Shown in pieces: positions 2,674 to 51,917 of a stretch of DNA of 64,000 nucleotides. The DNA lies in the NCBI RefSeq assembly GCF_024372725.1, contig NZ_VOUA01000002.1, positions 1 through 64,000 on the forward strand. Reading direction: 5' to 3'. Origin of the DNA: Methanosarcina sp. KYL-1. Lineage in GTDB: Archaea > Halobacteriota > Methanosarcinia > Methanosarcinales > Methanosarcinaceae. Within the stretch, counting starts at the first letter, position 1; each line of letters begins with the position of its first letter. Both the position numbers and the translations under genes were made by a program. The notes under the pieces were generated by a model. The model searched no databases. It saw only the letters and a list, made by a program, of their open reading frames with translations, and was not told the origin of the DNA.

Positions 2674-3061
2674 ACTTGCTATCCCTCCTTGTTAACTTCC
2701 AGATTTAATATCTACTCTCTTCTCCCCTATATCTTCTTTTTATTTATATATGCTGTTTTCTGGTTCTTCTGGCAGAATACTTTTTATATCTCCATGGAAG
2801 AGTCATCTTAGCTTTCATCTTAACTCTCAGGCGCTTTCACTCCCCTAATTCCCGATTCCGGCCCATGTCTTAATATCATTGAGTTGAAAGTGGCCCCGAG
2901 AAATTAAAATCACATAATAGGACGGAGTTTTTGGCAATTATTTATATATACGAAAGAAAAACTCACAATTAAAATTATATACTTATATAAAATTCTTTAA
3001 TCTCCCTCCGGAGATGAAAAAGGTCCGGGGAGATTGTAATAAACAGTTGAGGAATTTTTGC
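2674..3061. other. Intergenic region between divergent genes
   Basis: It separates the lipoprotein gene (minus) from the radical SAM gene (plus) and is AT-rich. TATA-like runs near 2740-2750 and 2940-2950 could serve the two divergent promoters. An in-frame ATG at 3014 lies within it, but the better ribosome binding site favours the downstream start. Nothing else is recognised. Confidence 0.4.
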
Positions 3062-4066
3062 ATGCATGATAGGCTCATGACTCCGGAAATAAAAGCTCTC
3101 CTCATTTCCATCGGTTCCGTTTCCATAGATCCTTCCCTCGTTCCGCGGGCCCGGGGCTCCACAGCAGGCCCTGGAGCAGGTATCAGTTCCGTTTTCTTCA
3201 GGTCGGGGGAAAGAAGGGTAAGGCTAAGCATCAGAGAAGATTCCCCTCTTTCCATAGAAAAATCAGGAGACGAATCAGGAGGTGAAAGCATGGTTTCGCT
3301 CTTTTTTGAAGGGAAAGAGCTGGCCCGCGGAAGGCTTGAGCCTGCCCTTGCCCATTGTCCGGAGCAGGCTTTCATTACCCTCTGCGAAAGGTGTATCTTT
3401 GACTGTAAATACTGTCCCGTGCCCAAACTCCAGGGACATGTCAAGAGTGAAGAAGACGTCCTGAAAATCGTCGATGAAGTTTTTAAGGCAGGCCAGCTTA
3501 AAGCCATTTCCCTCACCTCGGGTGTCGAGGAAACCGTTGAAGGAGAGGTGGACCGCGTGCTCGGGCTGCTCCCGGCCCTCAAAAAGTATGGTGTTCCCAT
3601 AGGGGTTTCGGTGTATCCCACCGAGGGCTGTTCCCGAAAATTCTACGAAGCCGGAGCTTCCGAAGTCAAGTATAACGTGGAAACAATGGACAGTGAAATT
3701 TTCCAGAAGGTCTGCGGGGGCCTTTTCCTTGACGAGATCCTGGAAAGGCTCAAAGAAGCTGTGGACATTTTCGGAAAAAACAGGGTCTTTAGCAATTTCA
3801 TAATAGGGCTTGGAGAAACAGATGATGCCGTCCGGGAAGGAATCGAAACTCTTGCAAAAATGGGTGTAATTCCTGTCCTGCGCCCGGTAAGCCCTCATCC
3901 TTTAAGGGCTGGAGATTGTTTTGCCGAACGCCCATCGCCTGAGCGCCTTTTGAAGCTTGCAAAAATGGAGGCTGAAATCCTCAAAAAATACGGGTTGAAA
4001 CCCGAACTGGCAGAAACCATGTGTCCCAGATGCACTGGCTGCGACCTTGTGCCCTCAGACCTTTGA
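3062..4066 (+). CDS. Radical SAM protein
   Basis: Radical S-adenosylmethionine enzyme. The cluster motif is Cys-x3-Cys-x2-Cys in CERCIFDCKYC, about one third into the protein and slightly longer-spaced than in BioB-like proteins only in context. A TIM-barrel-like C-terminal region follows, ending in a second cysteine group, CPRCTGC, that could hold an auxiliary iron-sulfur cluster. The substrate cannot be deduced. I chose ATG 3062 (334 residues) because TTGAGG lies about 9 nt upstream. An in-frame ATG at 3014 would add 16 residues but has GGAG only one or two bases before it. It resembles archaeal radical SAM proteins related to biotin synthase and pyruvate-formate-lyase activators; not PylB, whose start and motif context differ. 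Confidence 0.85.
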   Translation: MHDRLMTPEIKALLISIGSVSIDPSLVPRARGSTAGPGAGISSVFFRSGERRVRLSIREDSPLSIEKSGDESGGESMVSLFFEGKELARGRLEPALAHCPEQAFITLCERCIFDCKYCPVPKLQGHVKSEEDVLKIVDEVFKAGQLKAISLTSGVEETVEGEVDRVLGLLPALKKYGVPIGVSVYPTEGCSRKFYEAGASEVKYNVETMDSEIFQKVCGGLFLDEILERLKEAVDIFGKNRVFSNFIIGLGETDDAVREGIETLAKMGVIPVLRPVSPHPLRAGDCFAERPSPERLLKLAKMEAEILKKYGLKPELAETMCPRCTGCDLVPSDL

Positions 4067-37215: not shown

Positions 37216-39969
37216 ATGAGTAATAACCAGACTCCGGAGCAGAAAGCCAGAAATGACATTGACAAAAAATTAAATGATTCTGGCTGGATAGTGCAGGAAA
37301 AGACTAAAATCGACTGGAGTGCTTCCAGGGGCATTGCGGTTAAGGAGTATCTGACCGATGTGGGGCCGGCTGATTACGTACTCTTTGTTGATAAAAAGCC
37401 CGTTGGAATTATTGAGGCGAAAAGGGACGAAGAAGGCCACCGGTTAACCGTTGTTGAGGACCAGTCATCCGAGTACGCCACAAGCAAGCTAAAATACCTG
37501 AACAATGACCCGCTTCCTTTTGTGTACGAGAGTACCGGAAAACTCACACGGTTCACAGACCAGCGTGACCCGAAACCCAGGTCAAGACCTGTTTTTTCTT
37601 TTCTCCGGCCCGAGACTTTTGAGGAATGGCTCAAAAAGAAACCCCTGAGGGAAAGGTTTCTTGGCATACCTGGATTGCGGACCGAAGGGCTGCGGGACTG
37701 CCAGGTAATAGCGATCTCAAATCTTGAAAAATCTTTTAAGGACAACCGCCCGAGGGCTCTGGTCCAGATGGCAACAGGTTCCGGAAAGACCTATACTGCC
37801 ATAACCTTCATCTACCGATTACTAAAATTTGCGGGTGCCAGAAAGGTACTGTTCCTTGTCGATACCAAAAACCTGGGCGAGCAGGCAGAACAGGAATTCA
37901 TGGCTTACGTGCCCAATGATGATAACCGCAAATTTACCGAGCTGTACAACGTGCAGCGCCTGCGTTCCAGTTATATCTCCTCGGACAGCCAGGTGTGCAT
38001 TTCCACAATCCAGCGGCTTTACTCCATTCTGAAGGACGAGGAGCTGGACGAGAAAATTGAGGAAGAAAACCCTGCCGAGAGGGGCTGGCAGCCAAAAGAA
38101 CCGCTTCCCGTGGTGTATAATGAGAAGGTTCCTATTGAAGAGTTTGATTTTGTGGTCATAGACGAGTGCCACCGTTCCATTTACAACCTGTGGCAGCAGG
38201 TGCTGGACTATTTCGATGCTTTTTTGATAGGCCTGACGGCCACGCCGGACAAACGCACTTTCGCGTTTTTCAATGAGAACGTGGTGAGCGAGTACAGCCA
38301 CGAGGAAGCAGTGGCAGACGGCGTGAATGTGGGCTATGACGTGTACACCATCGAGACCGAGATCAGCAAAAACGGGGCAACGATAAATGCGCGGGAGTTT
38401 GTGGACAAACGGGAGAAACTTACCCGCAAAAAACGCTGGGAACAACTGGATGAACCTGTCACCTATACCTCTAAGAAACTGGACCGGGACGTGGTCAACC
38501 CCAGCCAGATCAGGCATGTGATACGGACATTTAAGGAGAAGCTGCCCGAGATCTTCCCCGGCAGGGAGGAAGTCCCAAAAACCCTGGTCTTTGCCAAGAA
38601 CGACAGCCATGCAGATGATATTATCAACATACTGCGGGAAGAATTCAACGAAGGAAATGCCTTTTGCAAGAAAGTGACCTACAAAGCGGAAGAAGACCCA
38701 AAATCGGTGCTGGCAGATTTCCGCAACGCTTACAATCCCAGAATAGCGGTTACGGTGGACATGATTGCAACAGGTACGGACGTCAAGCCCCTGGAATGCC
38801 TGCTCTTCATGAGGGATGTCAAGAGCCTGAACTATTTCGAGCAGATGAAGGGCCGGGGCACACGGACCCTGGGCTTCGATGACCTGAAAAAGGTGACAAC
38901 ATCGGCTGTTTCTGCCAAGACGCATTTTGTAATTGTGGATGCTGTTGGCGTTACAAAGACCCTGAAGACCGACAGCCGGCCTCTGGAACGCAAGAGGAAC
39001 ACCTCACTGAAAGACCTGCTGGCAGCAGTAACCTTTGGCGCCCGGGACGAAGACCTTTATGTTTCCCTGGCTAACAGGCTCGCAAGGCTGAACCGGCAGA
39101 TAAGCGATGACGAAAGAGCCACTTTTACAGAAAAAGCTAACGGGAAAACCATCAACCAGGCTATCAGGGACCTGCTCTATGCATATAACCCTGATATCAT
39201 CGATCTCCATGCTTCTGAAATCAAACAATGCCAGCCGGAAATTCAGGAAGCCGATTCAAAGAAAAAGGCACAGGAGAATCTGATCGATGTTGCCAGGTCC
39301 ACCTTTTCCGGAGAGCTGAACGAGTATATCGAAAATGTCCGCAGGGTCCATGAGCAGATAATTGATTCCGTGAACACCGACAAAGTGCTCAGAGCTGAAT
39401 GGGACAAAGACGCTGTAGCAAAGGCAGACGAGCTGATTATTGACTTTAAGGCATATATGGAAGCTAACAAAGACGAACTCACAGCCCTGAGAATCTTCTA
39501 CAACCAGCCCTACCAGCGCAGGGATGTCACCTTCACGATGCTAAAAGAAGTCCTGGAAAAGCTGAAACTCGAAAAGCCCCATTTCGCCCCCTTCAGGGTC
39601 TGGCAGGCTTACGAGCAGCTGGAAAAGGTAAACGGCAATTCCCCTAAAAACGAACTCACAGCCCTGGTCTCCCTTATCCGCAGAATAACCGAGATCGACC
39701 CTGTGCTGACCTCCTACGACCAGACCGTAAACCGGAACTTCCAGGAATGGGTATTCAAAAAACAGGCAGGAACCCTGAAATTCAACGACGACCAGATGAA
39801 CTGGCTCCGAATGATAAAAGATTATGTGGCTAACAGCTTCCACCTGGAAATAGACGACCTTGATTACACTCCTTTTGATGCTCCTGGAGGGCGAGGCAGA
39901 ATGTACCAGCTTTTCGGGGACGAGATGAATATGGTTATCAGTGAATTGAATGAGGCACTGGCTGTGTGA
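37216..39969 (+). CDS. hsdR: Type I restriction enzyme, R subunit
   Basis: The motor and nuclease subunit of a type I R-M complex. N-terminal nuclease: ADYVLFVDKKPVGIIEAKRDE gives the D...E-x-K core at about residues 53-69. Helicase domain: Walker A MATGSGKTYTA (about 187-197), DECH box VVIDECHRS (about 315), GLTATPDKRT (motif III), MKGRGTRT (motif VI). The C-terminal 300 residues match the EcoEI-type HsdR C-terminal domain. The length of 917 is normal. hsdM is at 50409 and hsdS at 44062, so the operon has been split. The gene ends in a repeat GTGGGGTGAAAA that is found again at 41250-41460. Confidence 0.95.
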   Translation: MSNNQTPEQKARNDIDKKLNDSGWIVQEKTKIDWSASRGIAVKEYLTDVGPADYVLFVDKKPVGIIEAKRDEEGHRLTVVEDQSSEYATSKLKYLNNDPLPFVYESTGKLTRFTDQRDPKPRSRPVFSFLRPETFEEWLKKKPLRERFLGIPGLRTEGLRDCQVIAISNLEKSFKDNRPRALVQMATGSGKTYTAITFIYRLLKFAGARKVLFLVDTKNLGEQAEQEFMAYVPNDDNRKFTELYNVQRLRSSYISSDSQVCISTIQRLYSILKDEELDEKIEEENPAERGWQPKEPLPVVYNEKVPIEEFDFVVIDECHRSIYNLWQQVLDYFDAFLIGLTATPDKRTFAFFNENVVSEYSHEEAVADGVNVGYDVYTIETEISKNGATINAREFVDKREKLTRKKRWEQLDEPVTYTSKKLDRDVVNPSQIRHVIRTFKEKLPEIFPGREEVPKTLVFAKNDSHADDIINILREEFNEGNAFCKKVTYKAEEDPKSVLADFRNAYNPRIAVTVDMIATGTDVKPLECLLFMRDVKSLNYFEQMKGRGTRTLGFDDLKKVTTSAVSAKTHFVIVDAVGVTKTLKTDSRPLERKRNTSLKDLLAAVTFGARDEDLYVSLANRLARLNRQISDDERATFTEKANGKTINQAIRDLLYAYNPDIIDLHASEIKQCQPEIQEADSKKKAQENLIDVARSTFSGELNEYIENVRRVHEQIIDSVNTDKVLRAEWDKDAVAKADELIIDFKAYMEANKDELTALRIFYNQPYQRRDVTFTMLKEVLEKLKLEKPHFAPFRVWQAYEQLEKVNGNSPKNELTALVSLIRRITEIDPVLTSYDQTVNRNFQEWVFKKQAGTLKFNDDQMNWLRMIKDYVANSFHLEIDDLDYTPFDAPGGRGRMYQLFGDEMNMVISELNEALAV

Positions 39970-39994
39970 GTTCGGAGAAGGTTCGGAGAAAACT

Positions 39995-40047
39995 GTGGAG
40001 AAAAGTGGGGTGAAAAGTGGGGTGAAAAGTGGGGTGAAACTGTGATG
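39995..40047. repeat. AAAAGTGGGGTG tandem repeat after hsdR
   Basis: Four to five copies of a 12-bp unit (AAAGTGGGGTGA plus A) right behind the hsdR stop. The same unit returns at 41250-41277, 41340-41372 and 41443-41466, so it marks copies of the hsdR 3' end. Confidence 0.85.
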
Positions 40048-40260
40048 AAAACCAGCATTTCGGGATAATTCATAGACGTTCTTTTGCTAACATTTTTCAG
40101 TACTGGTGGACGCGACCTCAAGTACGTAAGGAATGTATATTATTAATGAATTGTTATTATTAATGGGGCGGTTTATGATGGGCAGGCTGTGAGCATAGAA
40201 CGCTTCTCTGTACTTTTGGAAGAGATAAATAAAGACAATGGGTGAATAATATATTGGGAG

Positions 40261-41046: not shown

Positions 41047-41060
41047 CCTGAATGACACAA

Positions 41061-41160
41061 GTAGACAATTATTTAATCAAATGACATCTTAAAAGTACTT
41101 CAAAATTGATACTAAAAAATGATGCTATTGTGAAAGAAAAAGTTGGATGGAAAGTTGGGT
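41061..41160 (+). pseudogene. Fragment of the hsdS promoter and first codons
   Basis: It aligns with 44005-44105, the region covering the upstream part and first 15 codons of hsdS: both carry GTAGACAATTATTTAATCAA, and the coding part reads LKNDAIVKEKVGW against MKNGATVEERAGW. The start ATG has become CTA. The fragment ends abruptly after GGATGG. Confidence 0.8.
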
Positions 41161-41187: not shown

Positions 41188-41277
41188 TGAATTGAATGAG
41201 GCACTGGCGGCGTGAGTTCGGAGAAAAGTTCGGAGAAAAGTTCGGAGATAAGTGGGGTGAAAAGTGGGGTGAAAATA
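41188..41277 (+). pseudogene. Fragment of the hsdR 3' end
   Basis: It aligns with 39942-40030: TGAATTGAATGAGGCACTGGC, then a stop codon and the GTTCGGAGAAAA and GTGGGGTGAAAA repeats. It encodes ELNEALAA-stop against ELNEALAV-stop in hsdR. The fragment lies right after the hsdS fragment, the reverse of the order hsdR-hsdS. Confidence 0.85.
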
Positions 41278-41466
41278 ATCGGATAAAAGCAAAAAAATAA
41301 GCAGCTTGCGGTGGAAACTGGACCTAATAGAGGAGAATAGGTTGGGAGAAAAGTGGGGTGAAAAGTGGGGTGAAAATAAACGGATAAAAGTAAAAAATAA
41401 GCAGCTTGCGGTTGAAAATCTGGTATAAATGAGGAAAATATGTTGGGAGAAAAGTGGGGTGAAAAT
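41278..41466. repeat. Two tandem units of about 95 bp
   Basis: Two direct units, each containing CGGATAAAAG, AAATAAGCAGCTTGCGGT, TTGGGAGAAAAGTGGGGTGA. They end directly at the stop codon of the unknown gene on the minus strand. Together with the 12-bp units they form a repeat-rich boundary of the inserted operon. Confidence 0.85.
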
Positions 41467-42629
41467 TAGTTATTTGATTTTGAAAGAGTTTTCAAGTCGT
41501 TCTTCAGCACGTTTTTCTTTGATTTGAAATAGTCCAATGACTTATCTGGTTCTTCAGTAATAACTTGCACAAGTTTATCGGCTTCAATACATTGTTGTTG
41601 CAAATTGACAATTTTGAGATATTTTTCTAACCTGCTCTCTTTGTCGGTATTAAGGTCGTTTATTGAGATTAAAGCATCAGCTGGATAAATGCTTTCTAAA
41701 TTATCCTTAATTGCATCAAAACGATAATACCCGTAATCATCCACATTCAGTAATCTTTTTGTGTTTCTTGGAATATTCTTCATGGCTTTGAGTTTTTCGT
41801 AAAACTCAGGGTTTCTTTTGGGACCGGAATGGATACCTCCAAGACTATCCAGACCATAACCAAAACCTAAAATGTCCCTTGCAGATAGCACTTTCTGGTC
41901 ATTAATCGATTTCCCATAACTTACATTTACAAAGTGAAACAGATGATTTTCTTCATATCCCCTTTTGGCGAGTTCTCTTTTCATTGCATTTAACATATCT
42001 AAATGAGTTGTAATCATGGTCCCATCAAAATCAACATAGTAGGCGTTGATTCCTTTGTCAAGGTAATAATTTATGAGTTCCCTGCCGAAAAGAGGAGCTT
42101 TTGCAGGTATATACCCCATAATATTTTTCTTGTTCCTTATTTCAATGCTGTCGTAGCAAAAGTCTAAATATTTTGTAAAGTCATCAAAGTTTTCAAAGTT
42201 CAAATTTCTGGCTACTTTGGGAACTGAAGGAATTGGGGTTATGTCCGAGTGTGAATATGCAAAGTTAGTCAAGATGTCAATTTCTTTCTCCGTGGGGTAT
42301 CTCCAATTCTCTCCCTTATTCTTAAATTCCAATAGACAAAAGTACGGACAGCCATTAACTTTTTCTTTCTCTCTTTTTAATTGATTGTTTTTGTCGGAGG
42401 AGAATTTAGCGTCCTGGTCTTTTTTTATTAGAGATTCTCCATCAAATTTCAAAAAAAGCTCCTGTAAGTCACAAAGTTCTTTTGGAAAAGAAGTATCTTT
42501 ATAGAAACTGTTTGTTGCAATCGCTTTTGTTGGTGTTTTCAGGTCTTTGTTCCCTATTTTCACATGCAAACTTCTTAAATCAGTATCATCAGCGATTGAG
42601 CACAGATGAATTTTCGTTTCTTTTGTCAT
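41466..42629 (-). CDS. Unknown 387-residue protein, last gene of the defence-island operon
   Basis: I do not recognise this protein with confidence. ATG 42629 is chosen because it overlaps the stop of the PIN gene by 4 nt (ATGA), so translation is coupled. The C-terminal 200 residues alternate beta strands and helices like a TIM barrel: NIMGYIPAKAP, NYYLDKGINAYYVDFDGTM, LFHFVNVSYGKS, ARDILGFGYGLDSLGG, KRLLNVDDYGYYR. The DFDGTM and GYGLDSLGG segments give a faint likeness to tRNA-guanine-transglycosylase-like proteins such as those used in DNA deazaguanine modification; this is only a guess. No TM segment or signal. The DNA is AT-rich compared with hsdR and hsdM. Confidence 0.65.
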   Translation of the reverse strand: MTKETKIHLCSIADDTDLRSLHVKIGNKDLKTPTKAIATNSFYKDTSFPKELCDLQELFLKFDGESLIKKDQDAKFSSDKNNQLKREKEKVNGCPYFCLLEFKNKGENWRYPTEKEIDILTNFAYSHSDITPIPSVPKVARNLNFENFDDFTKYLDFCYDSIEIRNKKNIMGYIPAKAPLFGRELINYYLDKGINAYYVDFDGTMITTHLDMLNAMKRELAKRGYEENHLFHFVNVSYGKSINDQKVLSARDILGFGYGLDSLGGIHSGPKRNPEFYEKLKAMKNIPRNTKRLLNVDDYGYYRFDAIKDNLESIYPADALISINDLNTDKESRLEKYLKIVNLQQQCIEADKLVQVITEEPDKSLDYFKSKKNVLKNDLKTLSKSNN

Positions 42630-43123
42630 CTTAACAATTCCTTGAGGATGTCTTCTTTTATCCAAAAAGAAGAGCATTTTATGCTATTATATATTTCATT
42701 ACACTCGACACTCGTGAGTTCATTCAGTTTTTCTTTTTGCCATAAGAGTAAGCCTATAGTCCCATTTACTTTTATTCCATACTTTGACTTCAACTGTCGT
42801 GCTCTTTCATCAATGATACAGCGGTAACTGTCTCCTGATTGCTCTTTTTCTATGCCGGCACAGATAACACTGATCTCTCCTTCATGCAACCAGGGATAAC
42901 GCTTTGAAATTTTTGATAAGCACTGCTCATCAACGTTATCTATAACCGAAAAACCTTTGCAAACCTTGAATAACCTGAAAGTTTCAGGATTTTTTTCAAG
43001 CTCTTCATATACCTGTTTTGTGACGGATAAATCATATCCGTGTTTTTTGCAGATTTCAAAAGCTTTGGGGAAGTTCGCTTCCCGAAGCAAACAGACAATT
43101 GAGGAGGCATCAAATATTTTCAC
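42626..43123 (-). CDS. PIN-domain nuclease of DUF3368 type
   Basis: A 165-residue PIN-fold protein, probably an endoribonuclease toxin. The first acidic residue is in KIFDASSIVCLL (Asp4), the Glu of the second motif in LHEGEISVICAG, the third in CIIDERARQLKSKYG (Asp), and KVNGTIGLLLWQK is the signature segment of DUF3368 proteins. These pair with UPF0175-type antitoxins, and the gene upstream has a UPF0175-like tail. It follows that gene after 5 nt and overlaps the next by 4 nt. Confidence 0.8.
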   Translation of the reverse strand: MKIFDASSIVCLLREANFPKAFEICKKHGYDLSVTKQVYEELEKNPETFRLFKVCKGFSVIDNVDEQCLSKISKRYPWLHEGEISVICAGIEKEQSGDSYRCIIDERARQLKSKYGIKVNGTIGLLLWQKEKLNELTSVECNEIYNSIKCSSFWIKEDILKELLR

Positions 43124-43128
43124 GCTTT

Positions 43129-43701
43129 TTACCTCCTCTGCATATCAAGAAAAGTCTCTATGTTTACACCTGCAAGAGAAGCAGCTTTTTCCAAACTGAC
43201 GATACCTTTTTTGTAGATAGAAATCGAGTTTTTAACCCTTGATTTCATTATTCTGTGATATTCAGTTGATTCGATGGTGTAGTCGGGATATGATGCATAG
43301 ATAAAAAGAAGAATTTCGTCATTGGTGAGATTACTGATAAATTCCTTGAAGTCGGAAATTGATTCTATTTCATCCGGGGAGAAGGTATCCTGCTTCAGAC
43401 CCAGTACCTTCTTACCTATCGGAGTGATCATGTAAATATTGCTCCCTTTTTTTTCGACAAGGCCCATCGACACCAGATTATCCATGCTAACCTCTGAAGC
43501 CTCACTATACGGGCCGAGGGAATGCGGAATGAATTCTGCCCTCTCATCCACTTTATCAATGTAGTTTGAGATCAGAAACATCTCTTTTTGAAAAGCAACA
43601 TTTCCCTTTACAGGTTTTTCACCATTAACTTCCAATAATTCAAGTATAGCAACGCTTAAAGGAGACAGGTCCTCTGCAATATTATCCAGTGAAAACCTCA
43701 A
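43129..43701 (-). CDS. Winged-helix protein with UPF0175-like C-terminus, putative antitoxin
   Basis: A 190-residue protein. The N-terminal part (FQKEMFLISNY, FIPHSLGPYSEASEVSMDNLVSMGLVEKKG) has a GPYS-E motif and wing like Panacea/DUF4065-related winged-helix proteins. The last 30 residues (KGIVSLEKAASLAGVNIETFLDMQRR) match the pattern of UPF0175 antitoxins. Its place directly before a DUF3368 PIN gene supports an antitoxin role. A direct overlap of 4 nt with the RHH gene ties translation together. The family label rests on motif likeness only. Confidence 0.65.
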   Translation of the reverse strand: MRFSLDNIAEDLSPLSVAILELLEVNGEKPVKGNVAFQKEMFLISNYIDKVDERAEFIPHSLGPYSEASEVSMDNLVSMGLVEKKGSNIYMITPIGKKVLGLKQDTFSPDEIESISDFKEFISNLTNDEILLFIYASYPDYTIESTEYHRIMKSRVKNSISIYKKGIVSLEKAASLAGVNIETFLDMQRR

Positions 43702-43943
43702 TTTGCTTCCCCCTTAACCTTTACTTTGTTCTCGTTGCCATTTGAAGCGCTGTTCCTTTTTTCACAGGATATGCTGCTATATTGTATAATATTTCGCCTT
43801 ATGGCATCCTTCACAAACTCCTGGACGGAGACAAAACCCAATTTTCTATCGCTATCAATGATTCTTTCAATTTCTTCCTTCATCTCACACGGAATACTTA
43901 TTTTACTGTATTTTGTAGACGTTTTCTCCTTGTTTGTGACCAT
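43698..43943 (-). CDS. Ribbon-helix-helix DNA-binding protein
   Basis: An 81-residue protein with a ribbon-helix-helix N-terminus: KYSKISIPCEMKEEIERIID, then FVSVQEFVKDAIRRNI, the usual strand and two helices. It is the first gene of the operon and probably autoregulates it. ATG 43943 (MVTNKEKTSTKY) is preferred to the ATG at 44012, because the extension reads as non-protein-like and would bury the operator repeats. A charged C-terminal tail (ENKVKVKGEAN) could contact the partner. Confidence 0.75.
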   Translation of the reverse strand: MVTNKEKTSTKYSKISIPCEMKEEIERIIDSDRKLGFVSVQEFVKDAIRRNIIQYSSISCEKRNSASNGNENKVKVKGEAN

Positions 43944-43970
43944 ATATAGAGCATATATGAAGCATATATG
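43941..43970 (-). promoter_or_regulatory. 11-bp phased CATATATG operator candidate
   Basis: Three copies of CATATAT[A/G] begin at 43941, 43952 and 43963, exactly one DNA turn apart; the last two are perfect 8-bp palindromes (CATATATG). The first copy includes the start codon of the RHH gene. RHH repressors bind such phased short sites, so this is a likely autoregulatory operator overlapping the promoter TATA sequence. Confidence 0.6.
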
Positions 43971-44061
43971 CCTTAAATCTTTGGTACTGTCTCCCCGAGA
44001 GACAGTAGACAATTATTTAATCAAAAATGACCTTTTAAAAGTTCATCGAGGTCAGCAATAA

Positions 44062-45543
44062 ATGAAAAATGGTGCTACTGTGGAAGAAAGAGCCGGATGG
44101 ATAGAAACTGAACTGGGTCAACTTTGTTCTAAAATAGTTGATGGCACTCATCATACACCTGAATATACGGAAAAAGGAATTCCATTTATTTCAGTCAAAG
44201 ATATTCATAATGGGAAAGTAAACTTTGATAATTGCAAATATATTAGTTGCGAAACACATAATGAATTAATTAAAAGATGTTTTCCTGAACCAGATAACCT
44301 TTTAATTACAAAAAGTGGAACAATCGGAAGGATGGCAATCGTTCCAAAAAAGCCCGATTTTAGTTTATTCGTTAGCGTCGCTCTTTTAAAAAACTATAAA
44401 TCGATTATTAACACAAAGTTTCTTCTTTATTCCCTTGAAAATTATCTAAACTCAATCAATATAAGTCAGGATATCAAAGGCGGATTAATTAAAAATTTTC
44501 ACTTAGAGGATATAAGGGTCACAAAAGTTAATCTTGCCCCCCTCCCCGAACAACGCGCCATAGTTTCCAAAATCGAACAACTCTTCAGCGAACTGGACAA
44601 CGGCATTTCCAACCTCAAAATGGCAAAGGAGCAGCTCAAGGTATATCGGCAGGCGGTGCTGAAGAAAGCATTTGAAGGAGAGCTTACGAAAAAGTGGCGG
44701 GAGCAGAAGGCGGATTTGCCGGATGCGGGGGATTTGCTGGAGCAGATCAGGAAGGAGAGAGAAGAAACTGCAAAAAAATCCAGTAAAAAAATGAAATCGA
44801 TTAATTCGCTCGCAGAATCTCAATTATCAAATCTACCTAAAGGATGGGGTTGGACTAGATTAGGTAATTTGGTTGAAGAGCCTAAATATGGGACTTCTAA
44901 AAAATGTGATTATAATATAAATGGCATAGGGGTGCTTCGTATCCCTAATATCTCAGATGGCTTAATTAATGACTCTGACTTGAAATTCGCTCAATTTGAT
45001 TCATCTGAGATTGAAAATTACTGTTTGAAAGCAGAGGATATTCTTACAATCCGGTCTAATGGAAGTGTTGATTTAGTTGGGAAATGTGCATTGGTTAGCG
45101 TAAAGGATGAAAAATACCTTTATGCAGGTTATTTAATTAGACTTAGACCTATTAGCTCATTAATCAATTCAAAATATCTTTTAAACTGTCTTTCTTCAAT
45201 AGATTTACGTTATCAAATTGAGTCAAAAGCAAAATCAACAAGTGGGGTTAATAACATCAATTCGGGGGAATTACAATCTTTAATAATTCCGATCTGTTCC
45301 CTCCCCGAGCAACAAGCCATCGTTCAGGAAATCGAAACCCGCCTTTCAGTCTGCGATAAGATAGAGCAAGATATAAAAGAGAGTCTGGAAAAAGCCGAAG
45401 TACTGCGGCAGAGTATTCTTAAAAAAGCGTTTGAGGGGAAGTTGCTTAACAAAAAAGAGCTGGCAGAGGTTCGACGGGCAGAGGATTGGGAGCCGGGTGA
45501 GGTTTTGTTAGAGAGAGTGAAGGCTGAAAGAGCGAGAAAATAA
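44062..45543 (+). CDS. hsdS: Type I restriction-modification specificity subunit
   Basis: A 493-residue HsdS with two target-recognition domains separated by coiled-coil conserved regions. TRD1 is about residues 13-160, followed by LAPLPEQRAIVSKIEQLFSEL and a long helix to about 235 with LKKAFEGELTKKW. TRD2 is about 260-405, followed by ICSLPEQQAIVQEIETRLSVC and SILKKAFEGKLL. The repeated PEQ and KKAFEG motifs mark the two halves. GAGGT lies 9 nt before ATG 44062. A 5' fragment of this gene lies at 41061-41160. Confidence 0.95.
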   Translation: MKNGATVEERAGWIETELGQLCSKIVDGTHHTPEYTEKGIPFISVKDIHNGKVNFDNCKYISCETHNELIKRCFPEPDNLLITKSGTIGRMAIVPKKPDFSLFVSVALLKNYKSIINTKFLLYSLENYLNSINISQDIKGGLIKNFHLEDIRVTKVNLAPLPEQRAIVSKIEQLFSELDNGISNLKMAKEQLKVYRQAVLKKAFEGELTKKWREQKADLPDAGDLLEQIRKEREETAKKSSKKMKSINSLAESQLSNLPKGWGWTRLGNLVEEPKYGTSKKCDYNINGIGVLRIPNISDGLINDSDLKFAQFDSSEIENYCLKAEDILTIRSNGSVDLVGKCALVSVKDEKYLYAGYLIRLRPISSLINSKYLLNCLSSIDLRYQIESKAKSTSGVNNINSGELQSLIIPICSLPEQQAIVQEIETRLSVCDKIEQDIKESLEKAEVLRQSILKKAFEGKLLNKKELAEVRRAEDWEPGEVLLERVKAERARK

Positions 45544-45576: not shown

Positions 45577-47526
45577 ATGAGAGAAGATGAGATCAAAAAG
45601 GGTGTCCAGTTAATCTGTGATACATCTAAGGAGATGTACAAACTTTATGAGGATAAAAATGCCTTAATCGAGAAGCTCAATAGTCTGCATAAGGAGGATT
45701 TGGCTCCATTAGAATATGATTATAGGTTGAAATCAGGGCCGGTTATAGACCTACGTAAAGATGTGTTAAAATATCTGCTAAATGGTAATAAACTGGATGA
45801 ACAAATATTTGATGAATTTATTCTTAAGCACCGTACTGGAAAGGAAGATAAGTACGTATCATATCAAAATCCATTTTCTATATTTCATCCATTCATCACT
45901 TCCTATGGACACAAACCGCTAAGGGATTTTGTAGAACGATTCGTAGATGAGATAATCGAAAGACTAAAATTAAATGGAAAAGTTTCATACAGGTATGTCG
46001 CCTTTCAGGGCGCTAAATATTCGGGAACTGATAAATTATGGTTTGCAATTTCTAATAACAAACATACTTCACAGACAGAAGTAATGCAGATTTTTGTAAA
46101 ATTTCAAGATGGTATAATTAGATACAGTATTCGTCGTTACGATGGCAATGGAATAGATATAAGGGGACCGGTAGAAAAAGACCCTACCAACTTTGACTTT
46201 GAAGCATTTATTTCTTTTTTTGAAGAAAACAAAGAATTGATACTGAAAGATGAGCCTGAAGAAGAGGACTCGAATGTGCCATTCTCATATGAAAATTTTG
46301 GAGCGGAATTTGTTTCAGATAGTGCTAAACATTCAGAAATGTATGTAAACTTGCCACAGTTTCCCTGCAACATCATATTATATGGTCCACCTGGCACTGG
46401 AAAGACATATAATACAATTGACCTGGCAGTTGAAATTATCACTGGAAATAACGCAGGTCATGAAGAAAATAAAAAGGTGTTCGATGCTTTAAGAGAAGAA
46501 GGGCAGATTGAATTTATTACATTCCATCAAAACTACAGCTATGAAGACTTCATGATGGGCATTCGTCCAGATCTTGATGAAGCCTCAACCTTAAAATTCA
46601 GGCGTAAAGAGGGCATATTCTACAAGATATGTAAAAGAGCAGAGCAGAATTATTTGCAATCACGGAATAAAAAGAATGCAATTAGACCTTTTAAAGAAGT
46701 ATTCTCGGAATTTCTCGAGCCACTCGAAAAAGAGGAAGTGGAAATCGAGATAAAAATGATTTCTGGTAAATCATCTTTTTGGATTACAGAAATTAATCCC
46801 AGCAATTTAAGTTTTAGAAAGCAATCTGGAGGCACCAGTCATACATTAAGCATAGATACAATTCAAGGGCTCTATGAAGGGACAAGGGAGTTTACAAGTG
46901 GTTTAAGGTCCTACTATGAACCTTTGATAAATGAACTATGGCGCAGAGGCAAACAAACTGCAGCAGAAGTTCCCTTGAAAAGATACGTGCTCATCATTGA
47001 CGAAATCAACAGAGCCAATATTTCAAAAGTATTTGGTGAGCTCATCACATTGTTAGAAGAAGACAAACGTCTAGGGGCTAAAAACGAGCTTAGAATCAGC
47101 ATTCCGGGTGAAGAAACCGGTTTTGGAATCCCGCCCAACGTTTATGTCATAGGGACCATGAATACTGCTGACAAATCGATAGCAATGATTGATATCGCAT
47201 TACGAAGGCGTTTTGAATTCCAGGGTTATTTCCCTGATTACAGCAAGGTGGATCAGCTCAGTGGAAATATTTTGAAGCACATCAATAATGAAATATATAC
47301 CCGCAAGAAGTCTGCGGATTACTTAATTGGACACGGGTATTTCATGAATGGCACAGAAGCTCCGGAAACTTCCAAAGTGCTTCAGAATAAAGTGATTCCA
47401 CTGATTATGGAATACTTTTCTGGCAAGACCGAGCTTGTCGAAGAAATATTCAAAGGAAGTGGATGGTCAGTAAAATACGATACTGAAAAATATTGCTGGG
47501 AAATCGATCCTCAAATCAAACAGTAA
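45577..47526 (+). CDS. mcrB: McrB-type AAA+ GTPase of type IV restriction system
   Basis: The motor and DNA-recognition subunit of an McrBC-type modification-dependent restriction system. Residues 1-260 form a variable, family-unassigned recognition region. The AAA+ domain has Walker A GPPGTGKT (270-277), the McrB-typical TFHQNYSYEDFMMGIRP, Walker B VLIIDEINRANISK, and the GTP-specificity/catalytic MNTADKS followed by RRRFEF. It is followed after 15 nt by mcrC and lies 33 nt after hsdS. The gene is AT-rich relative to hsdR and hsdM, which suggests separate acquisition. Confidence 0.93.
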   Translation: MREDEIKKGVQLICDTSKEMYKLYEDKNALIEKLNSLHKEDLAPLEYDYRLKSGPVIDLRKDVLKYLLNGNKLDEQIFDEFILKHRTGKEDKYVSYQNPFSIFHPFITSYGHKPLRDFVERFVDEIIERLKLNGKVSYRYVAFQGAKYSGTDKLWFAISNNKHTSQTEVMQIFVKFQDGIIRYSIRRYDGNGIDIRGPVEKDPTNFDFEAFISFFEENKELILKDEPEEEDSNVPFSYENFGAEFVSDSAKHSEMYVNLPQFPCNIILYGPPGTGKTYNTIDLAVEIITGNNAGHEENKKVFDALREEGQIEFITFHQNYSYEDFMMGIRPDLDEASTLKFRRKEGIFYKICKRAEQNYLQSRNKKNAIRPFKEVFSEFLEPLEKEEVEIEIKMISGKSSFWITEINPSNLSFRKQSGGTSHTLSIDTIQGLYEGTREFTSGLRSYYEPLINELWRRGKQTAAEVPLKRYVLIIDEINRANISKVFGELITLLEEDKRLGAKNELRISIPGEETGFGIPPNVYVIGTMNTADKSIAMIDIALRRRFEFQGYFPDYSKVDQLSGNILKHINNEIYTRKKSADYLIGHGYFMNGTEAPETSKVLQNKVIPLIMEYFSGKTELVEEIFKGSGWSVKYDTEKYCWEIDPQIKQ

Positions 47527-47541
47527 ATTTACCGGTAAATC

Positions 47542-48861
47542 ATGAATTCTATATTTGAATACGGCAAGCAAATTGCCGTTGATGACCGTGAAGGTCTTGA
47601 ATCGTATTTATGCTCTTTATGGAAAGAGTATAAAGAAATCTGGCCATCCCAGTTTGAAAATGAAAATGTAGATCCAGATTCAAAATTTCAGCCTTTCCTG
47701 AATTTTGATGGGAATAAGGCCAGAGCAAGGAATTACATCGGGTTCATTCATTTTGAAAACTCTAAAATAGAAATATATCCCAAGATTTTTAAAAACACAT
47801 CTGGAATAAGCAAAGAGCTCATTCATTGTCATTTGTTTTACTGGTTCGGTTATTGTAAAAAAGTGAAGTTCCCATTTAATCAAGCATTCCTTGATCGTTT
47901 TAAAATTGATGAACTACCTGAATTGATCATATATCTATTTGCAAATCAAATACATGAAGTTGTTAGTGTTCAACCATATTCCACTTATGAAGAAGTACAG
48001 GAAGCTCTATTTACACCCAGAGGAAGAATAGATTTTGACCGCTATGCAACCAGAATGTCCTACGGTAGTTATCACTTAATTGATTGTGACTATGAGCCTT
48101 TTGTATTTGATAATTCATTAAATCGCATAATCAAATATTGTACTCGATTATTGCTTTCAAAAACCAGAATTCCTGAAACTCAAAGAATATTGAATGAAAT
48201 TATTTTCGTTTTAGATGAAGTGGATGATCAGGTGTGTTCCACACAACAACTGCTAACACTCAAAATATCTCCAATATATAGCGATTACGAAGAAATAATT
48301 CAGATATGCCGCATGATATTAGAGAATCAAGTTTATTCGTACGAAGATTATGAAATGAAAAATTGGAGCTTATTATTCCCGATGGAACTTATTTTTGAAG
48401 AGTTTATAGCAGGCTATATCCAAAAACATTTTAGCGACATGTTTAAAGTAGATGTTCAAAAATCAGATATTTATCTGCAAACTGATCCTGAAGTGTTTAA
48501 AATTAAACATGACATTCTGCTCACAAATAAAGAAACTGATGAGCAGATAATTATTGATACTAAATATAAACCAAGATGGGACTTAGAAAAGAGTGATTCA
48601 AAGAAAGGAATATCCCAATCTGATATGTATCAAATGATCAGTTATGCCTACAGGAGAGGAACAGATAAAGTATTACTCATCTATCCAAATACCTCTGAAA
48701 AACTGGCAGATGATTCTGTGTTTTTGATAAATAAAGGTACTATGGATGAAACTATCAAAATCAAAGCCATAGATGTGCCTTTTTGGTCACTTGATGGTCA
48801 CTCATATGTTGAAGAAAATCTAAAAGTTAAATTAATTGATATATTATCCAATAAGTTCTGA
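47542..48861 (+). CDS. mcrC: McrC-type endonuclease subunit
   Basis: The nuclease partner of McrB, 439 residues. The N-terminal half (about 1-230) is the McrB-binding region (SYGSYHLIDCDYEPFVFDN). The PD-(D/E)xK nuclease centre is KIKHDILL (Asp) and IIIDTKYKPRW (D-x-K) at about residues 315-345, followed by the QxxxY-type QSDMYQMISYA helix. The layout matches McrC or LlaJI-like partners. It is cotranscribed with mcrB. Confidence 0.92.
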   Translation: MNSIFEYGKQIAVDDREGLESYLCSLWKEYKEIWPSQFENENVDPDSKFQPFLNFDGNKARARNYIGFIHFENSKIEIYPKIFKNTSGISKELIHCHLFYWFGYCKKVKFPFNQAFLDRFKIDELPELIIYLFANQIHEVVSVQPYSTYEEVQEALFTPRGRIDFDRYATRMSYGSYHLIDCDYEPFVFDNSLNRIIKYCTRLLLSKTRIPETQRILNEIIFVLDEVDDQVCSTQQLLTLKISPIYSDYEEIIQICRMILENQVYSYEDYEMKNWSLLFPMELIFEEFIAGYIQKHFSDMFKVDVQKSDIYLQTDPEVFKIKHDILLTNKETDEQIIIDTKYKPRWDLEKSDSKKGISQSDMYQMISYAYRRGTDKVLLIYPNTSEKLADDSVFLINKGTMDETIKIKAIDVPFWSLDGHSYVEENLKVKLIDILSNKF

Positions 48862-48976
48862 AAAATGCCTTTACCTTTATTATTGATATGTGGATTCGGA
48901 AGTTTCCAAATAAATAACTAAGTTTCCTTGAGAAAAATCAGAACTGAGAACACAAGAAATTAGAACGTGAGTATGC

Positions 48977-50416
48977 ATGATCTCCGAGCAATTAAAGAGC
49001 ATCATCCAGGACGGTGAAGGGCTTACCGTTGAATTTAAGGAGTGCAAAACTCAGATAAACCGTGATGTGTACGAGACGGTCTGTGCTTTTCTAAATCGCA
49101 ATGGAGGACATATTGTTCTTGGAGTTGATGACAATGGGAATATCACAGGAATTGATGCGGATGCTCTGCCACAGATCAAAAAGGACCTTGTTACTGCCTT
49201 GAACAACCCGCAGGTAATCAATCCTCCGTTGTACATATTGCCGGAGACCGTGAAGATTGAAGGAAAAATCCTTCTCTATCTCAATATTCCTGAAAGTTCG
49301 CAGGTTCACCGTTGTAAAGGAAAGATATTTGATAGGAATGAAGACGGGGACCTGGATGTTACCAACCATCCCGATGCTGTGGCACATCTCTATATTCGAA
49401 AACAGAGCTCATTTTCAGAGAACCGCATTTATCCCTATGTAAAGCTTGAAGACCTCAGGAGTGACCTTATTCAGAGAGTGCGGAAAATGGTCCGTGCCGA
49501 AAACCCCAATCATCCATGGGCAACAATGACTGATGAGGAGCTTCTAAGCAGTGCCCGTCTGTATCAGCATGATTACCAGACCGGCAAAGAGGGTTACACT
49601 CTTGCTGCTATTCTTTTGCTGGGCAAAGACGAAGTTATCCAGAGCGTACTGCCCCATTTCAAGACTGATGCCATTCTTCGCAGAGTAAACCTTGACCGTT
49701 ATGACGACAGGGACGACATCCGCACCAACCTGATCGAAAGCTATGACAGGCTGATGGCTTTTGTCGCAAAACATCTGCCAGACCCGTTCTATCTGGAAAA
49801 GGACCAGAGAATCAGCCTGAGAGATCATATTTTCAGAGAAGTTGTTGCAAATATACTCATCCACAGGGAGTACATAAACGGTTTTCCTGCAAAATTCATA
49901 ATTGGAAATAATCAGGTTGTTGCAGAGAATGCGAATCGTCCACACGGGCATGGCAGAATAAATCCTTCCAATTTCACACCCTACCCTAAAAATCCGGTAA
50001 TTGCTCGCTTTTTTAAAGAGATCGGAAGAGCGGATGAGTTAGGCTCAGGCGTCAGGAATCTCTACAACTACACAAGGATTTATTCCGGTGGAGCTGACCC
50101 ACAACTTCTTGAAGGGGATATTTTTAAGATCATCATTCCTGTTACCCAGCAGGCTACCCAGCAGGCTACCCAGCAGGCTACCCAGCAGGCTACCCAGCAG
50201 GCTGACATGCAGGAACTACTAATTGAGTTTTGCAAGGAACCAAAATCAACCAGCGAAATTATGCAATATTTACAGTTAAAAGATAGAGAGTATTTCCGCT
50301 CCAAAATATTGAAACCGCTTTTGGATGATGGAATCATGCACAGAACCATTCCTGAAAAACCAAGCAGTCCGAATCAAAAATATTATTCCAAACCCAAGGA
50401 TCCAAACCATGTCTGA
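48977..50416 (+). CDS. AlbA_2 (Schlafen-like) / GHKL ATPase regulator
   Basis: A 479-residue protein. N-terminal AlbA_2/Schlafen-like nucleic acid domain (GEGLTVEFKECK, AFLNRNGGHIVLGVDDNGNITG). A central GHKL ATPase domain of the HATPase_c_4 type has N-box EVVANILIHREY, G-box ADELGSGVRNLYNY. A five-fold TQQA repeat (nt 50143-50204) leads to a winged-helix C-terminus (STSEIMQYLQLKDREYF). This COG2865-type protein often lies inside type I R-M operons. It overlaps hsdM by 8 nt, so the two are translationally linked. Confidence 0.88.
   Translation: MISEQLKSIIQDGEGLTVEFKECKTQINRDVYETVCAFLNRNGGHIVLGVDDNGNITGIDADALPQIKKDLVTALNNPQVINPPLYILPETVKIEGKILLYLNIPESSQVHRCKGKIFDRNEDGDLDVTNHPDAVAHLYIRKQSSFSENRIYPYVKLEDLRSDLIQRVRKMVRAENPNHPWATMTDEELLSSARLYQHDYQTGKEGYTLAAILLLGKDEVIQSVLPHFKTDAILRRVNLDRYDDRDDIRTNLIESYDRLMAFVAKHLPDPFYLEKDQRISLRDHIFREVVANILIHREYINGFPAKFIIGNNQVVAENANRPHGHGRINPSNFTPYPKNPVIARFFKEIGRADELGSGVRNLYNYTRIYSGGADPQLLEGDIFKIIIPVTQQATQQATQQATQQATQQADMQELLIEFCKEPKSTSEIMQYLQLKDREYFRSKILKPLLDDGIMHRTIPEKPSSPNQKYYSKPKDPNHV
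50143..50204 (+). repeat. In-frame 12-bp repeat encoding TQQA x5
   Basis: Five near-perfect copies of ACCCAGCAGGCT within the AlbA_2/GHKL gene, forming a Thr-Gln-Gln-Ala linker. Since the unit is 12 bp, slippage changes linker length without a frameshift. Confidence 0.9.
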
Positions 50417-51917
50417 AAACACCTCATCCATCGTTTCCAAAGTCTGGAGCTTCTGCAACGTCCTGAGGGACGGGGGCGTGAGCTATGGCGATTATCTGGA
50501 ACAGTTGACCTACCTCATATTCCTGAAAATGGCTCAGGAGTACAGGAAGCCTCCATATAACAGGGATATTGGCATCCCGGAAGAATATACCTGGGACAGA
50601 CTGAAACAGCAGCGTGGAGCGGAACTCGATACCCACTACAAAGAGCTTCTCGAAGAGCTCGGGAAAAAGCCGGGGATGCTGGGGCAGGTCTTCCTCAAGG
50701 CGCAGAACAAGATCAGTGACCCTGCCATGCTGTACAAGGTCATTGATATGATCGACAAGGAAAGCTGGGTCATGATGGGTGTGGATACCAAGGGAGAGAT
50801 CTACGAAGGGCTCCTGCAGAAGAATGCAGAAGATACAAAAAGCGGAGCCGGACAGTACTTCACCCCCAGGCCGCTCATCAAAGCAATGGTCCGGTGCCTC
50901 CGGCCCGAACCCATGAAGACAATAGGCGACCCCTGCTGCGGCACGGGAGGGTTCTTTTTAGCAGCTTATGACTTCCTGACCTCACACCACCGGCTGGACC
51001 GGGAGCAGAGCCGCTTCCTGAAAAACAAAACCTTTGGCGGAAACGAGATCGTCGCAGGGACCCGCCGGCTTGCCCTGATGAACATGTTCCTGCACAACAT
51101 CGGGGAAATCGACGGGGAGCCCATGATCTCCAATTCCGATGCTCTCATAGCCGACCCCGGATACCGTTACGATTACATCCTCACAAACCCGCCTTTCGGA
51201 AAGAAGAGCAGCATGACCTTCACCAACGAGGAAGGCGAGCAGGAAAAAGAAGACCTCACTTACAACCGCCAGGACTTCTGGACAACCACGAGCAACAAGC
51301 AGCTCAACTTTGTGCAGCATATCCACACTATCCTCAAAACAGGCGGGCAGGCCGCAGTGGTACTGCCGGACAACGTCCTGTTTGAAGGTGGAGCAGGAGA
51401 GACCGTCCGCAAAAAGCTTCTTGAGACCACCGACCTGCACACAATCCTGCGCCTGCCGACAGGGATCTTTTATGCGAACGGCGTAAAGGCAAACGTGCTG
51501 TTCTTTGAGGCAAAACCCGCAGCCAAAGAGCCCTGGACAAAAGAGGTGTGGATCTATGACTACCGCACCAATGTGCACCACACACTGAAGAAGAATACGA
51601 TGAAGTTTTCGGACCTGGAAGATTTCATCGAATGCTACAACCCGGAAAACCGCTTCAGCCGTAAAGAGACCTGTAGTGAGGAATCTCCCGAAGGCAGGTT
51701 CCGCAGGTTCGGCTATGATGAGATTGTAGCAAGGGATAAGACAAACCTGGATATCTTCTGGCTCAAGGACAAAAGCCTCGCTGACCTGGACAACCTTCCT
51801 GACCCCGATATTCTTGCAAACGAGATCATTGAGAATATGGAGGCTTCGCTGGCAAGTTTCAAGGAGATTATGCTCACGATTAACGGGGATGGGAACGGAA
51901 ACGGGAACGGGAATTGA
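50409..51917 (+). CDS. hsdM: Type I restriction-modification methyltransferase subunit
   Basis: The N6-adenine methyltransferase subunit, 502 residues. N-terminal helical domain (SKVWSFCNVLRDGGVSYGDYLEQLTYLIFLKM), SAM-binding motif I DPCCGTGGFFLAAY, catalytic motif IV NPPFGKKS (N-P-P-F), and C-terminal helices for HsdS binding. QYFTPRPLIKAMV is the conserved pre-motif I segment. ATG 50409 overlaps the stop of the upstream gene. The tail is a GNGNGNGN repeat coded by GGGAAC units. hsdR and hsdS lie 13 kb and 5 kb to the left, yet all three subunits appear intact. Confidence 0.95.
   Translation: MSENTSSIVSKVWSFCNVLRDGGVSYGDYLEQLTYLIFLKMAQEYRKPPYNRDIGIPEEYTWDRLKQQRGAELDTHYKELLEELGKKPGMLGQVFLKAQNKISDPAMLYKVIDMIDKESWVMMGVDTKGEIYEGLLQKNAEDTKSGAGQYFTPRPLIKAMVRCLRPEPMKTIGDPCCGTGGFFLAAYDFLTSHHRLDREQSRFLKNKTFGGNEIVAGTRRLALMNMFLHNIGEIDGEPMISNSDALIADPGYRYDYILTNPPFGKKSSMTFTNEEGEQEKEDLTYNRQDFWTTTSNKQLNFVQHIHTILKTGGQAAVVLPDNVLFEGGAGETVRKKLLETTDLHTILRLPTGIFYANGVKANVLFFEAKPAAKEPWTKEVWIYDYRTNVHHTLKKNTMKFSDLEDFIECYNPENRFSRKETCSEESPEGRFRRFGYDEIVARDKTNLDIFWLKDKSLADLDNLPDPDILANEIIENMEASLASFKEIMLTINGDGNGNGNGN

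What the first reader, a model, noticed from the sequence alone, without database searches (positions are those of the whole stretch)
41466..43970. Four-gene translationally coupled operon with RHH, UPF0175-like, PIN and an unknown protein
The genes are tied by 4-nt overlaps (RHH/UPF0175-like and PIN/unknown) and a 5-nt gap. A DUF3368-type PIN nuclease with a UPF0175-like partner is a known toxin-antitoxin style pair, but here it gains an RHH repressor at the front and a conserved-looking 387-residue protein at the back. The last protein could be an effector, sensor or modifying enzyme. Its TIM-barrel-like strand pattern recalls, weakly, transglycosylases used for DNA 7-deazaguanine modification. 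This is the best candidate for an undescribed system in the window.
Basis: inference. Interest (0 to 1): 0.8.

Follow-up and report, generated by a model that had tools for sequence, protein, structure and literature searches.

The report
PIN toxin cassette with TGT-like partner
Inside a DNA-restriction gene island of a methane-producing archaeon sits a small cassette that pairs a predicted RNA-cutting toxin and its antitoxin with a relative of a tRNA-modifying enzyme that has lost the usual active site; the same set recurs across many archaea inside antiviral gene clusters, which suggests a defence module not yet described as a unit.

Summary
The gene layout is as described: four minus-strand genes, two 4-nt overlaps and a 5-nt gap. 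The conserved unit is the last three genes, MID-PIN-TGTL; the RHH gene is optional. Of 49 loci found with the 387-aa protein (TGTL) as query, by hand tally 46 have MID next to it and 40 a PIN gene or remnant.

TGTL is predicted confidently (pLDDT 90, pTM 0.91). All 50 listed solved-structure matches are tRNA-guanine transglycosylases (best E 7.5e-10). A weak sequence match to archaeal ArcS agrees. The canonical catalytic Asp and zinc-ligand motifs are absent, while other residues are nearly invariant and dN/dS is 0.06-0.09.

MID combines a DarG-C-like (toxin-sequestering) fold with a UPF0175 antitoxin tail. PIN keeps its acidic residues and is swapped for a second PIN family in one subtype. 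The cassette is embedded in type I RM, Hma and type IIG/DrmM-like loci.

Best reading: a three-part toxin-antitoxin-like abortive defence module, with TGTL as tRNA- or base-recognising subunit and PIN as effector. Parts, co-occurrence and embedding are shown; target, trigger and toxicity are inferred. PADLOC lists MID and PIN separately; no library has TGTL.

The parts
43698..43943 (-). RHH (ribbon-helix-helix) DNA-binding protein, 81 aa; optional autoregulator
   Evidence: Pfam RHH_1 E 0.066, below cut-off, and PHROG 38461 4e-10; intact homologue in L163, remnants in L038/L039/L041/L150-L152
43944..43975 (-). CATATATG-type repeats just upstream of RHH; candidate RHH operator and promoter region
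   Evidence: read directly: GGCATATATGCTTCATATATGCTCTATATATGG here, a similar block before the intact RHH in L163, not seen in the printed upstream sequence of relatives whose RHH is decayed; inference
43129..43701 (-). MID: predicted antitoxin/inhibitor; DarG-C-like domain plus C-terminal UPF0175 helix-turn-helix
   Evidence: AF2 pLDDT 92.8; Foldseek 7yk3_D (DarTG) E 2.7e-3, prob 1.00; profile hit 7yk3_B 4e-5; UPF0175 in 19/25 homologues; PADLOC PDC-M19A 2e-13
42626..43123 (-). PIN-domain predicted ribonuclease, DUF3368 type; predicted toxin/effector
   Evidence: PADLOC PDC-S70 1.3e-10; DUF3368 in 10/21 homologues; acidic residues D5 and D105 invariant, E41 and E83 at least 90%
41466..42629 (-). 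TGTL: TGT-superfamily TIM-barrel protein, 387 aa, without the canonical TGT catalytic and zinc motifs; predicted tRNA/base-recognition subunit
   Evidence: AF2 pLDDT 89.7, pTM 0.91; all 50 listed PDB Foldseek matches are TGTs, best 7.5e-10; profile match to ArcS-like proteins; residue tally and dN/dS
41060..41155 (.). left copy of a ~100-bp direct repeat (75% identical, exact first 22 nt) bracketing the cassette
44004..44104 (.). right copy of the bracketing repeat, running into the start of hsdS
   Evidence: a similar pair brackets the cassette region in L038, L039 and L150
37216..39969 (+). host system: HsdR, type I restriction subunit
   Evidence: Pfam ResIII, EcoEI_R_C, HSDR_N
44062..45543 (+). 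host system: HsdS specificity subunit
   Evidence: Pfam Methylase_S 1.4e-23
45577..48861 (+). McrB- and McrC-like genes between hsdS and hsdM
   Evidence: NCBIfam McrB 6e-41 and McrC 6.5e-30, below the equivalog cut-offs
50325..51917 (+). host system: HsdM type I methyltransferase
   Evidence: PADLOC MTase_I 5e-194

Best explanation
MID-PIN-TGTL is a three-component, toxin-antitoxin-like abortive defence module that inserts into larger DNA-targeting defence systems (type I RM, Hma, type IIG/DrmM-like). At rest MID holds the PIN ribonuclease silent, with its UPF0175 tail acting like a VapB-type antitoxin arm and its DarG-C-like domain as a sequestering or sensing surface. TGTL, a TGT-fold protein that has probably given up base exchange, is the nucleic-acid-recognition subunit, most likely binding tRNA as TGT/ArcS proteins do, and it supplies target or trigger specificity. 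When infection disturbs this state, for example when a virus counters the surrounding RM/Hma system or alters tRNA or base modification, PIN is released and cleaves RNA, most likely tRNA, stopping growth of the infected cell. The first gene (RHH, AbrB-like or none) only tunes expression. Shown: gene set, co-occurrence, fold classes, loss of canonical TGT motifs, conserved PIN acids, effector swapping, embedding, purifying selection. Inferred: toxicity, inhibition by MID, tRNA as ligand/target, trigger, antiviral role.
For: Co-occurrence from searches with TGTL alone: 46/49 loci with MID, 40/49 with PIN, and only 1 MID-family and no PIN/TGTL hits in 20 arbitrary control regions (hand tally). 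Order MID-PIN-TGTL, or TGTL divergent from MID-PIN, or TGTL-MID-PIN', so it is not passive neighbourhood. The PIN gene is swapped from DUF3368 type to PF01850 type (8.9e-10 in L044) while MID and TGTL stay. MID resembles the DarT-binding half of DarG; DarG's C-terminal domain alone sequesters DarT and suffices for protection (PMC7003065). UPF0175 (COG2886) is a known PIN partner (PMC2701414). TGTL fold and similarity to ArcS-like proteins. Embedding in type I RM (13/44 examined cassette or MID-only loci against 1/20 controls with an HsdS fragment), Hma in five loci, type IIG/DrmM-like in L043. Patchy spread, 37/393 genomes of the phylum. Precedent: PrrC, a tRNase silenced by a linked type I RM enzyme and freed by a phage anti-restriction factor (PMC2610378 abstract).
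Against: No experiment shows toxicity, RNA cleavage or viral protection. tRNA as ligand rests on fold alone; profile-profile comparison with full TGTs was not significant and the ArcS match covers only ~65 C-terminal residues. Three haloarchaeal TGTL loci lack recognisable MID and PIN, and six MID-TGTL loci lack a recognisable PIN (L052, L211-L214, L218), so PIN is not universal. Loss of catalysis is read from alignment and secondary structure, not from superposed coordinates; nearly invariant N235, D261, H267, N342 leave room for another chemistry. Neighbours scanned in several other genomes gave no PADLOC match.
Confidence: 0.5

Rival explanations
1. TGTL is an active enzyme with a re-built active site: it exchanges or processes a base in tRNA or DNA and so marks the host's own nucleic acid, while PIN cuts the unmarked one (an RM-like pair).
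For: TGT-superfamily fold; nearly invariant polar residues E57, K168, N235, D252, D261, H267, N342, E349, K371 and strong purifying selection; DpdA shows TGT paralogues can be recruited to RM-like systems (PMC6884629).
Against: The nucleophile position in the GxD-x-x-[D] motif is G/A/S in all 26 members, no conserved acid stands in the strand matching DSGG, and the Cys/His zinc motif is absent. No biosynthetic or second modifying gene was noticed in the window's cassette.
Confidence: 0.17
2. It is an ordinary PIN-UPF0175 (VapBC-like) toxin-antitoxin pair with TGTL as an accessory regulator or chaperone, kept for stabilising the mobile island rather than for antiviral defence.
For: UPF0175/PIN pairs are known type II TA modules; RHH or AbrB-like genes at the front are typical TA regulators; cassettes decay often (L151, L152, L156).
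Against: TGTL is more constant than PIN (PIN is swapped or missing while MID-TGTL stays), which is unusual for an accessory gene; repeated embedding in defence systems.
Confidence: 0.2
3. TGTL is a reader of 7-deazaguanine bases in viral DNA: its TGT pocket binds the modified base that blocks the surrounding restriction system and then switches on PIN.
For: TGT fold with loss of catalytic motifs; insertion in restriction systems; haloarchaeal virus HVTV-1 carries dPreQ1 in ~30% of its G and resists all restriction enzymes tested (PMC6884629).
Against: No direct evidence of base binding; the preQ-recognition residues of TGT are not evidently conserved; no 7-deazaguanine virus of Methanosarcina was examined.
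Confidence: 0.12

Closest known systems
PIN-UPF0175 (COG2886) type II toxin-antitoxin modules (PMC2701414)
   Same: PIN ribonuclease next to a UPF0175 protein, regulators of RHH/AbrB type, mobile and patchy
   Different: antitoxin has an extra DarG-C-like domain; a third TGT-like gene is conserved; embedded in RM/Hma systems; PIN can be replaced by another PIN family
PADLOC phage-defence candidates PDC-S70 (PIN) and PDC-M19A; guilt-by-embedding set of Payne et al. 2024 (cited in PMC12988326)
   Same: PIN matches PDC-S70 (1.3e-10) and MID matches PDC-M19A (2e-13); PDCs come from an embedding screen
   Different: held as separate candidates; TGTL has no PADLOC, Pfam or NCBIfam match, so the three-gene unit is not described there; I could not read the preprint or the PADLOC system definitions
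tRNA-guanine transglycosylases, ArcS and DpdA
   Same: TIM-barrel fold, conserved N of the C-terminal HN motif, similar C-terminal helix
   Different: no nucleophile/general-acid Asp motifs, no CxCxxC-H zinc site, different invariant residues, linked to a toxin
DarTG
   Same: MID resembles the toxin-sequestering C-terminal domain of DarG
   Different: no DarT or macrodomain; effector is PIN; MID adds a UPF0175 tail
PrrC (and RloC) anticodon nucleases linked to type I RM
   Same: predicted RNase effector housed in a type I RM locus, plausible RM-failure trigger
   Different: no PrrC-like ABC ATPase protein; three separate proteins; also embedded in Hma

Membership tests
PIN-UPF0175 toxin-antitoxin module | adjacent PIN and UPF0175-bearing genes | tested here: met
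   19/25 MIDs match UPF0175, 10/21 PINs match DUF3368
PIN-UPF0175 toxin-antitoxin module | conserved acidic active-site residues in PIN | tested here: met
   D5 and D105 invariant, E41 and E83 at least 90% in 21 sequences
PIN-UPF0175 toxin-antitoxin module | toxicity of PIN neutralised by the partner | not testable with these tools
   needs expression assays
tRNA-guanine transglycosylase superfamily | TGT-type TIM-barrel fold | tested here: met
   AF2 pLDDT 89.7; the 50 listed PDB matches all TGT, E down to 7.5e-10, TM 0.5-0.63
tRNA-guanine transglycosylase superfamily | sequence-profile similarity | tested here: inconclusive
   A2 profile hits proteins with ArcS-like architecture at E 1e-4 (G292) and 1.8e-4 (G381) over ~65 residues incl. 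N342; hhalign with full TGTs not significant
tRNA-guanine transglycosylase (active enzyme) | catalytic Asp motifs (DSGG and GxDxFD) and CxCxxC...H zinc site | tested here: not met
   nucleophile position G/A/S in 26/26, no conserved acid at the DSGG strand, no Cys/His zinc motif; inferred from alignment and secondary structure, not superposition
Dpd (7-deazaguanine DNA modification) system | DpdA plus the multi-gene dpd cluster | tested here: not met
   no PADLOC match for TGTL and no dpd cluster among the neighbours scanned in the window
DarTG | DarT ADP-ribosyltransferase plus DarG with macrodomain | tested here: not met
   MID has only the C-terminal-domain-like part; PIN in place of DarT
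embedded defence candidates (PADLOC PDC) | gene lies inside an RM/Hma-type host system | tested here: met
PrrC-type RM-guarding anticodon nuclease | tRNase activity silenced by the linked RM enzyme | not testable with these tools
   only the genetic linkage is shown

The most novel reading that the evidence does not exclude
A new class of defence sensor: a catalytically retired TGT-superfamily protein that reads a base state (missing or foreign 7-deazaguanine/archaeosine in tRNA, or 7-deazaguanine in viral DNA) and, through a DarG-C/UPF0175 antitoxin, licenses exchangeable PIN ribonucleases as back-up when the surrounding restriction system is defeated.
Probability: 0.2. Interest if true: 0.87.

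Novelty: new variant of a known kind. Interest (0 to 1): 0.62.

Why it matters
Two of the three parts already sit, unlinked, in a defence-candidate library, and PDC-S70 is one of the candidates reported as enriched in Archaea and probably archaeal in origin (PMC12988326). Joining them with a TGT-superfamily partner makes one testable system and suggests what the sensor may read. If right, it would show that the tRNA/DNA 7-deazaguanine machinery has been turned into a recognition part of antiviral defence, and it would give archaeal virology a compact three-gene module to test.

Tried and rejected
Direct sequence search of TGTL against Pfam, NCBIfam, PADLOC, PHROGs and PDB: nothing. Phage collection: none; plasmids: one Haloarcula plasmid only, also with three divergent queries. 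hhalign against arcTGT and bacterial-type TGT: not significant. BFVD viral fold search: weak, low TM-scores; the second match is a protein of Vibrio phage nt-1, the phage reported to carry DpdA2, and some are queuine tRNA-ribosyltransferases. No Rfam family in 36-52.5 kb, no tRNA in the window. Rejected: that RHH is a core part (remnants in relatives); that TGTL is the housekeeping TGT (own TGT-family genes on other contigs); that the co-occurrence is neighbourhood drift (it persists at ~20-25% identity and in different gene orders).
Full report
OBSERVATION. The four genes are on the minus strand between hsdR and hsdS: RHH 43698-43943, MID 43129-43701, PIN 42626-43123, TGTL 41466-42629. The genome is a Methanosarcina (same-genus genomes; named close relatives). 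All three core genes are under purifying selection, dN/dS 0.06-0.11 in the closer comparisons with measurable dS.

SURROUNDINGS. The cassette is inside a type I restriction island: HsdR, then the cassette on the opposite strand, HsdS, McrB- and McrC-like genes and HsdM. It is bracketed by a ~100-bp direct repeat of 75% identity, with an exact 22-nt core, at 41060-41155 and 44004-44104. The same repeat occurs on both sides of the cassette region in L038, L039 and L150. A 50-bp, 92% copy of the hsdR 3' end lies at 41188-41238. This is what insertion or recombination into the hsd locus would leave; the route is inference.

RELATIVES. Searching with TGTL alone, protein or profile, across Methanosarcina, its class and its phylum gave matches in 37 of 393 evenly drawn genomes, 24 of 136 genera. 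Flanks were fetched and their ORFs searched with iterated profiles of MID, PIN and TGTL. By my hand count over those tables, 46 of 49 assessable TGTL loci have MID adjacent and 40 have a PIN gene or PIN remnant; 20 arbitrary regions of the same genomes gave one MID-family hit and no PIN or TGTL hit. Near-identical species are counted separately, so the independent number is smaller, but the set holds from 92% down to ~20% identity and in three gene orders. In one subtype (second cassettes of L044 and L046; L065, L157-L160, L206, L208) the order is TGTL-MID-PIN' and PIN' belongs to the classic PIN family PF01850 (8.9e-10 in L044, above cut-off; 2.5e-6 in L157). So PIN looks like an exchangeable effector on a MID-TGTL core. 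Intact MID without TGTL occurs, but several such loci look like wrecks: PIN truncated in L151 and L152, and PIN and TGTL fused by a deletion in L156.

TGTL. The AlphaFold2 model is confident (pLDDT 89.7, pTM 0.91). Foldseek against the PDB lists 50 matches, all tRNA-guanine transglycosylases, best E 7.5e-10, TM ~0.6, 10-13% identity. Independently, the TGTL profile, before any TGT was included, matched two genomic proteins at E 1e-4 and 1.8e-4. The one scanned against Pfam (L216) carries TGT, DUF5591, pre-PUA and PUA domains, an architecture I read from general knowledge as ArcS-like. The aligned block places TGTL N342 on the Asn of the TGT 'HN' motif. hhalign with full TGT alignments was not significant. 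The canonical machinery is missing: the position matching the nucleophile Asp (GxD-x-x-D) is Gly/Ala/Ser in all 26 members, there is no conserved acid in the strand matching DSGG, and the Cys/His zinc cluster is gone. Nearly invariant instead are E57, P134, K168, Y189, N235, D252, G259, D261, H267, Y299, N342, E349 and K371. The genome's own TGT-family genes are elsewhere (G000:C4 and C26), so TGTL is not the housekeeping enzyme.

MID AND PIN. The MID model (pLDDT 92.8) matches best the DarG chain of the M. tuberculosis DarTG complex (E 2.7e-3, prob 1.00, TM 0.51); the sequence profile gives the same protein at 4e-5. In DarTG this C-terminal domain sequesters the toxin (PMC7003065). MID ends in a UPF0175 helix-turn-helix (19/25 homologues), a known PIN partner (PMC2701414). 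PIN keeps its acidic residues. PADLOC recognises MID as PDC-M19A and PIN as PDC-S70; PDC-S70 is reported as archaea-enriched and likely archaeal in origin (PMC12988326).

EMBEDDING. Type I RM genes flank the cassette or its MID remnant in 13 of 44 loci examined besides the window, against 1 of 20 control regions with an HsdS fragment. In L049-L051 the order is HmaA-[MID-PIN-TGTL]-HmaB-HmaC, in L065 HmaA-HmaB-[TGTL-MID-PIN']-HmaC, and L058 has HmaB and HmaC beside it (the L049 matches stand for the near-identical L050/L051, of which L050 is cut short by its contig). L043 has a type IIG/DrmMI-like gene. Two subtypes lie within one hsd locus in L044. Not all neighbours were scanned, and of the large neighbours chosen only those in L043 gave matches.

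MECHANISM. The best-supported reading is a toxin-antitoxin-like abortive module: PIN effector, MID inhibitor, TGTL recognition subunit. Fold relatives of TGTL bind tRNA, PIN toxins commonly cut RNA, and PrrC shows a tRNase can be held by a type I RM enzyme and freed by a phage anti-restriction factor (PMC2610378). tRNA is therefore my preferred ligand and target, but this is inference. The alternative with the largest consequence is that TGTL reads 7-deazaguanine in viral DNA, a modification that blocks restriction and occurs heavily in the haloarchaeal virus HVTV-1 (PMC6884629).

NOVELTY. Separate parts are known or listed; the three-gene unit and the TGT-like family were not found in the libraries or papers searched. 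The library holds no bioRxiv preprints, and the embedding preprint (Payne et al. 2024) could not be read, so prior mention cannot be excluded. Bacterial chromosomes were not surveyed apart from one short-peptide scan of genome contigs.

Noticed in passing
L037:9161-9625, L061:6460-6927, L062:6406-6876: In three haloarchaeal loci TGTL has no recognisable MID or PIN but a convergent neighbour of ~155 aa with a conserved zinc-ribbon tail (YDLCPxCxxPLKTLEHER); possibly another partner.
   Followed up: partly
L212:6565-7041, L213:5973-6449, L214:6685-7176, L218:4493-4978: A different ~160-aa protein with paired CxxC motifs (CIYCGNxNP...CDxCGRxY) precedes MID-TGTL where no PIN is recognisable; a possible third effector type.
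   Followed up: partly
window 43944-43975; upstream of the RHH gene of L163 (5084-5278): CATATATG-like repeats lie upstream of RHH where RHH is intact and were not seen in relatives whose RHH is decayed, suggesting an RHH operator.
   Followed up: partly
L044:1583-8197, L046:1374-8220: Two cassettes of different subtype (TGTL-MID-PIN' and MID-PIN-TGTL) lie in one type I RM locus, on either side of hsdS.
   Followed up: partly
L156:6646-7029: A 127-aa ORF fuses the N-terminal half of PIN to the C-terminus of TGTL: a deletion scar of a once complete cassette.
   Followed up: yes
window 39965-40051, 41224-41275, 41337-41465: Several blocks of a 12-nt repeat (GTGGGGTGAAAA and variants) lie after hsdR and beside the cassette, with a 92% copy of the hsdR 3' end at 41188-41238.
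   Followed up: partly
window 45577-50416: McrB-like, McrC-like and a 479-aa protein gene are nested between hsdS and hsdM, so the type I locus houses at least two further insertions.
   Followed up: no
L042 and L043, just upstream of MID; L064 near 2595-3398: AbrB/MazE-like small genes stand in the place of RHH (Pfam MazE E 0.013 in L042, below cut-off), i.e. the regulator gene is exchangeable.
   Followed up: partly
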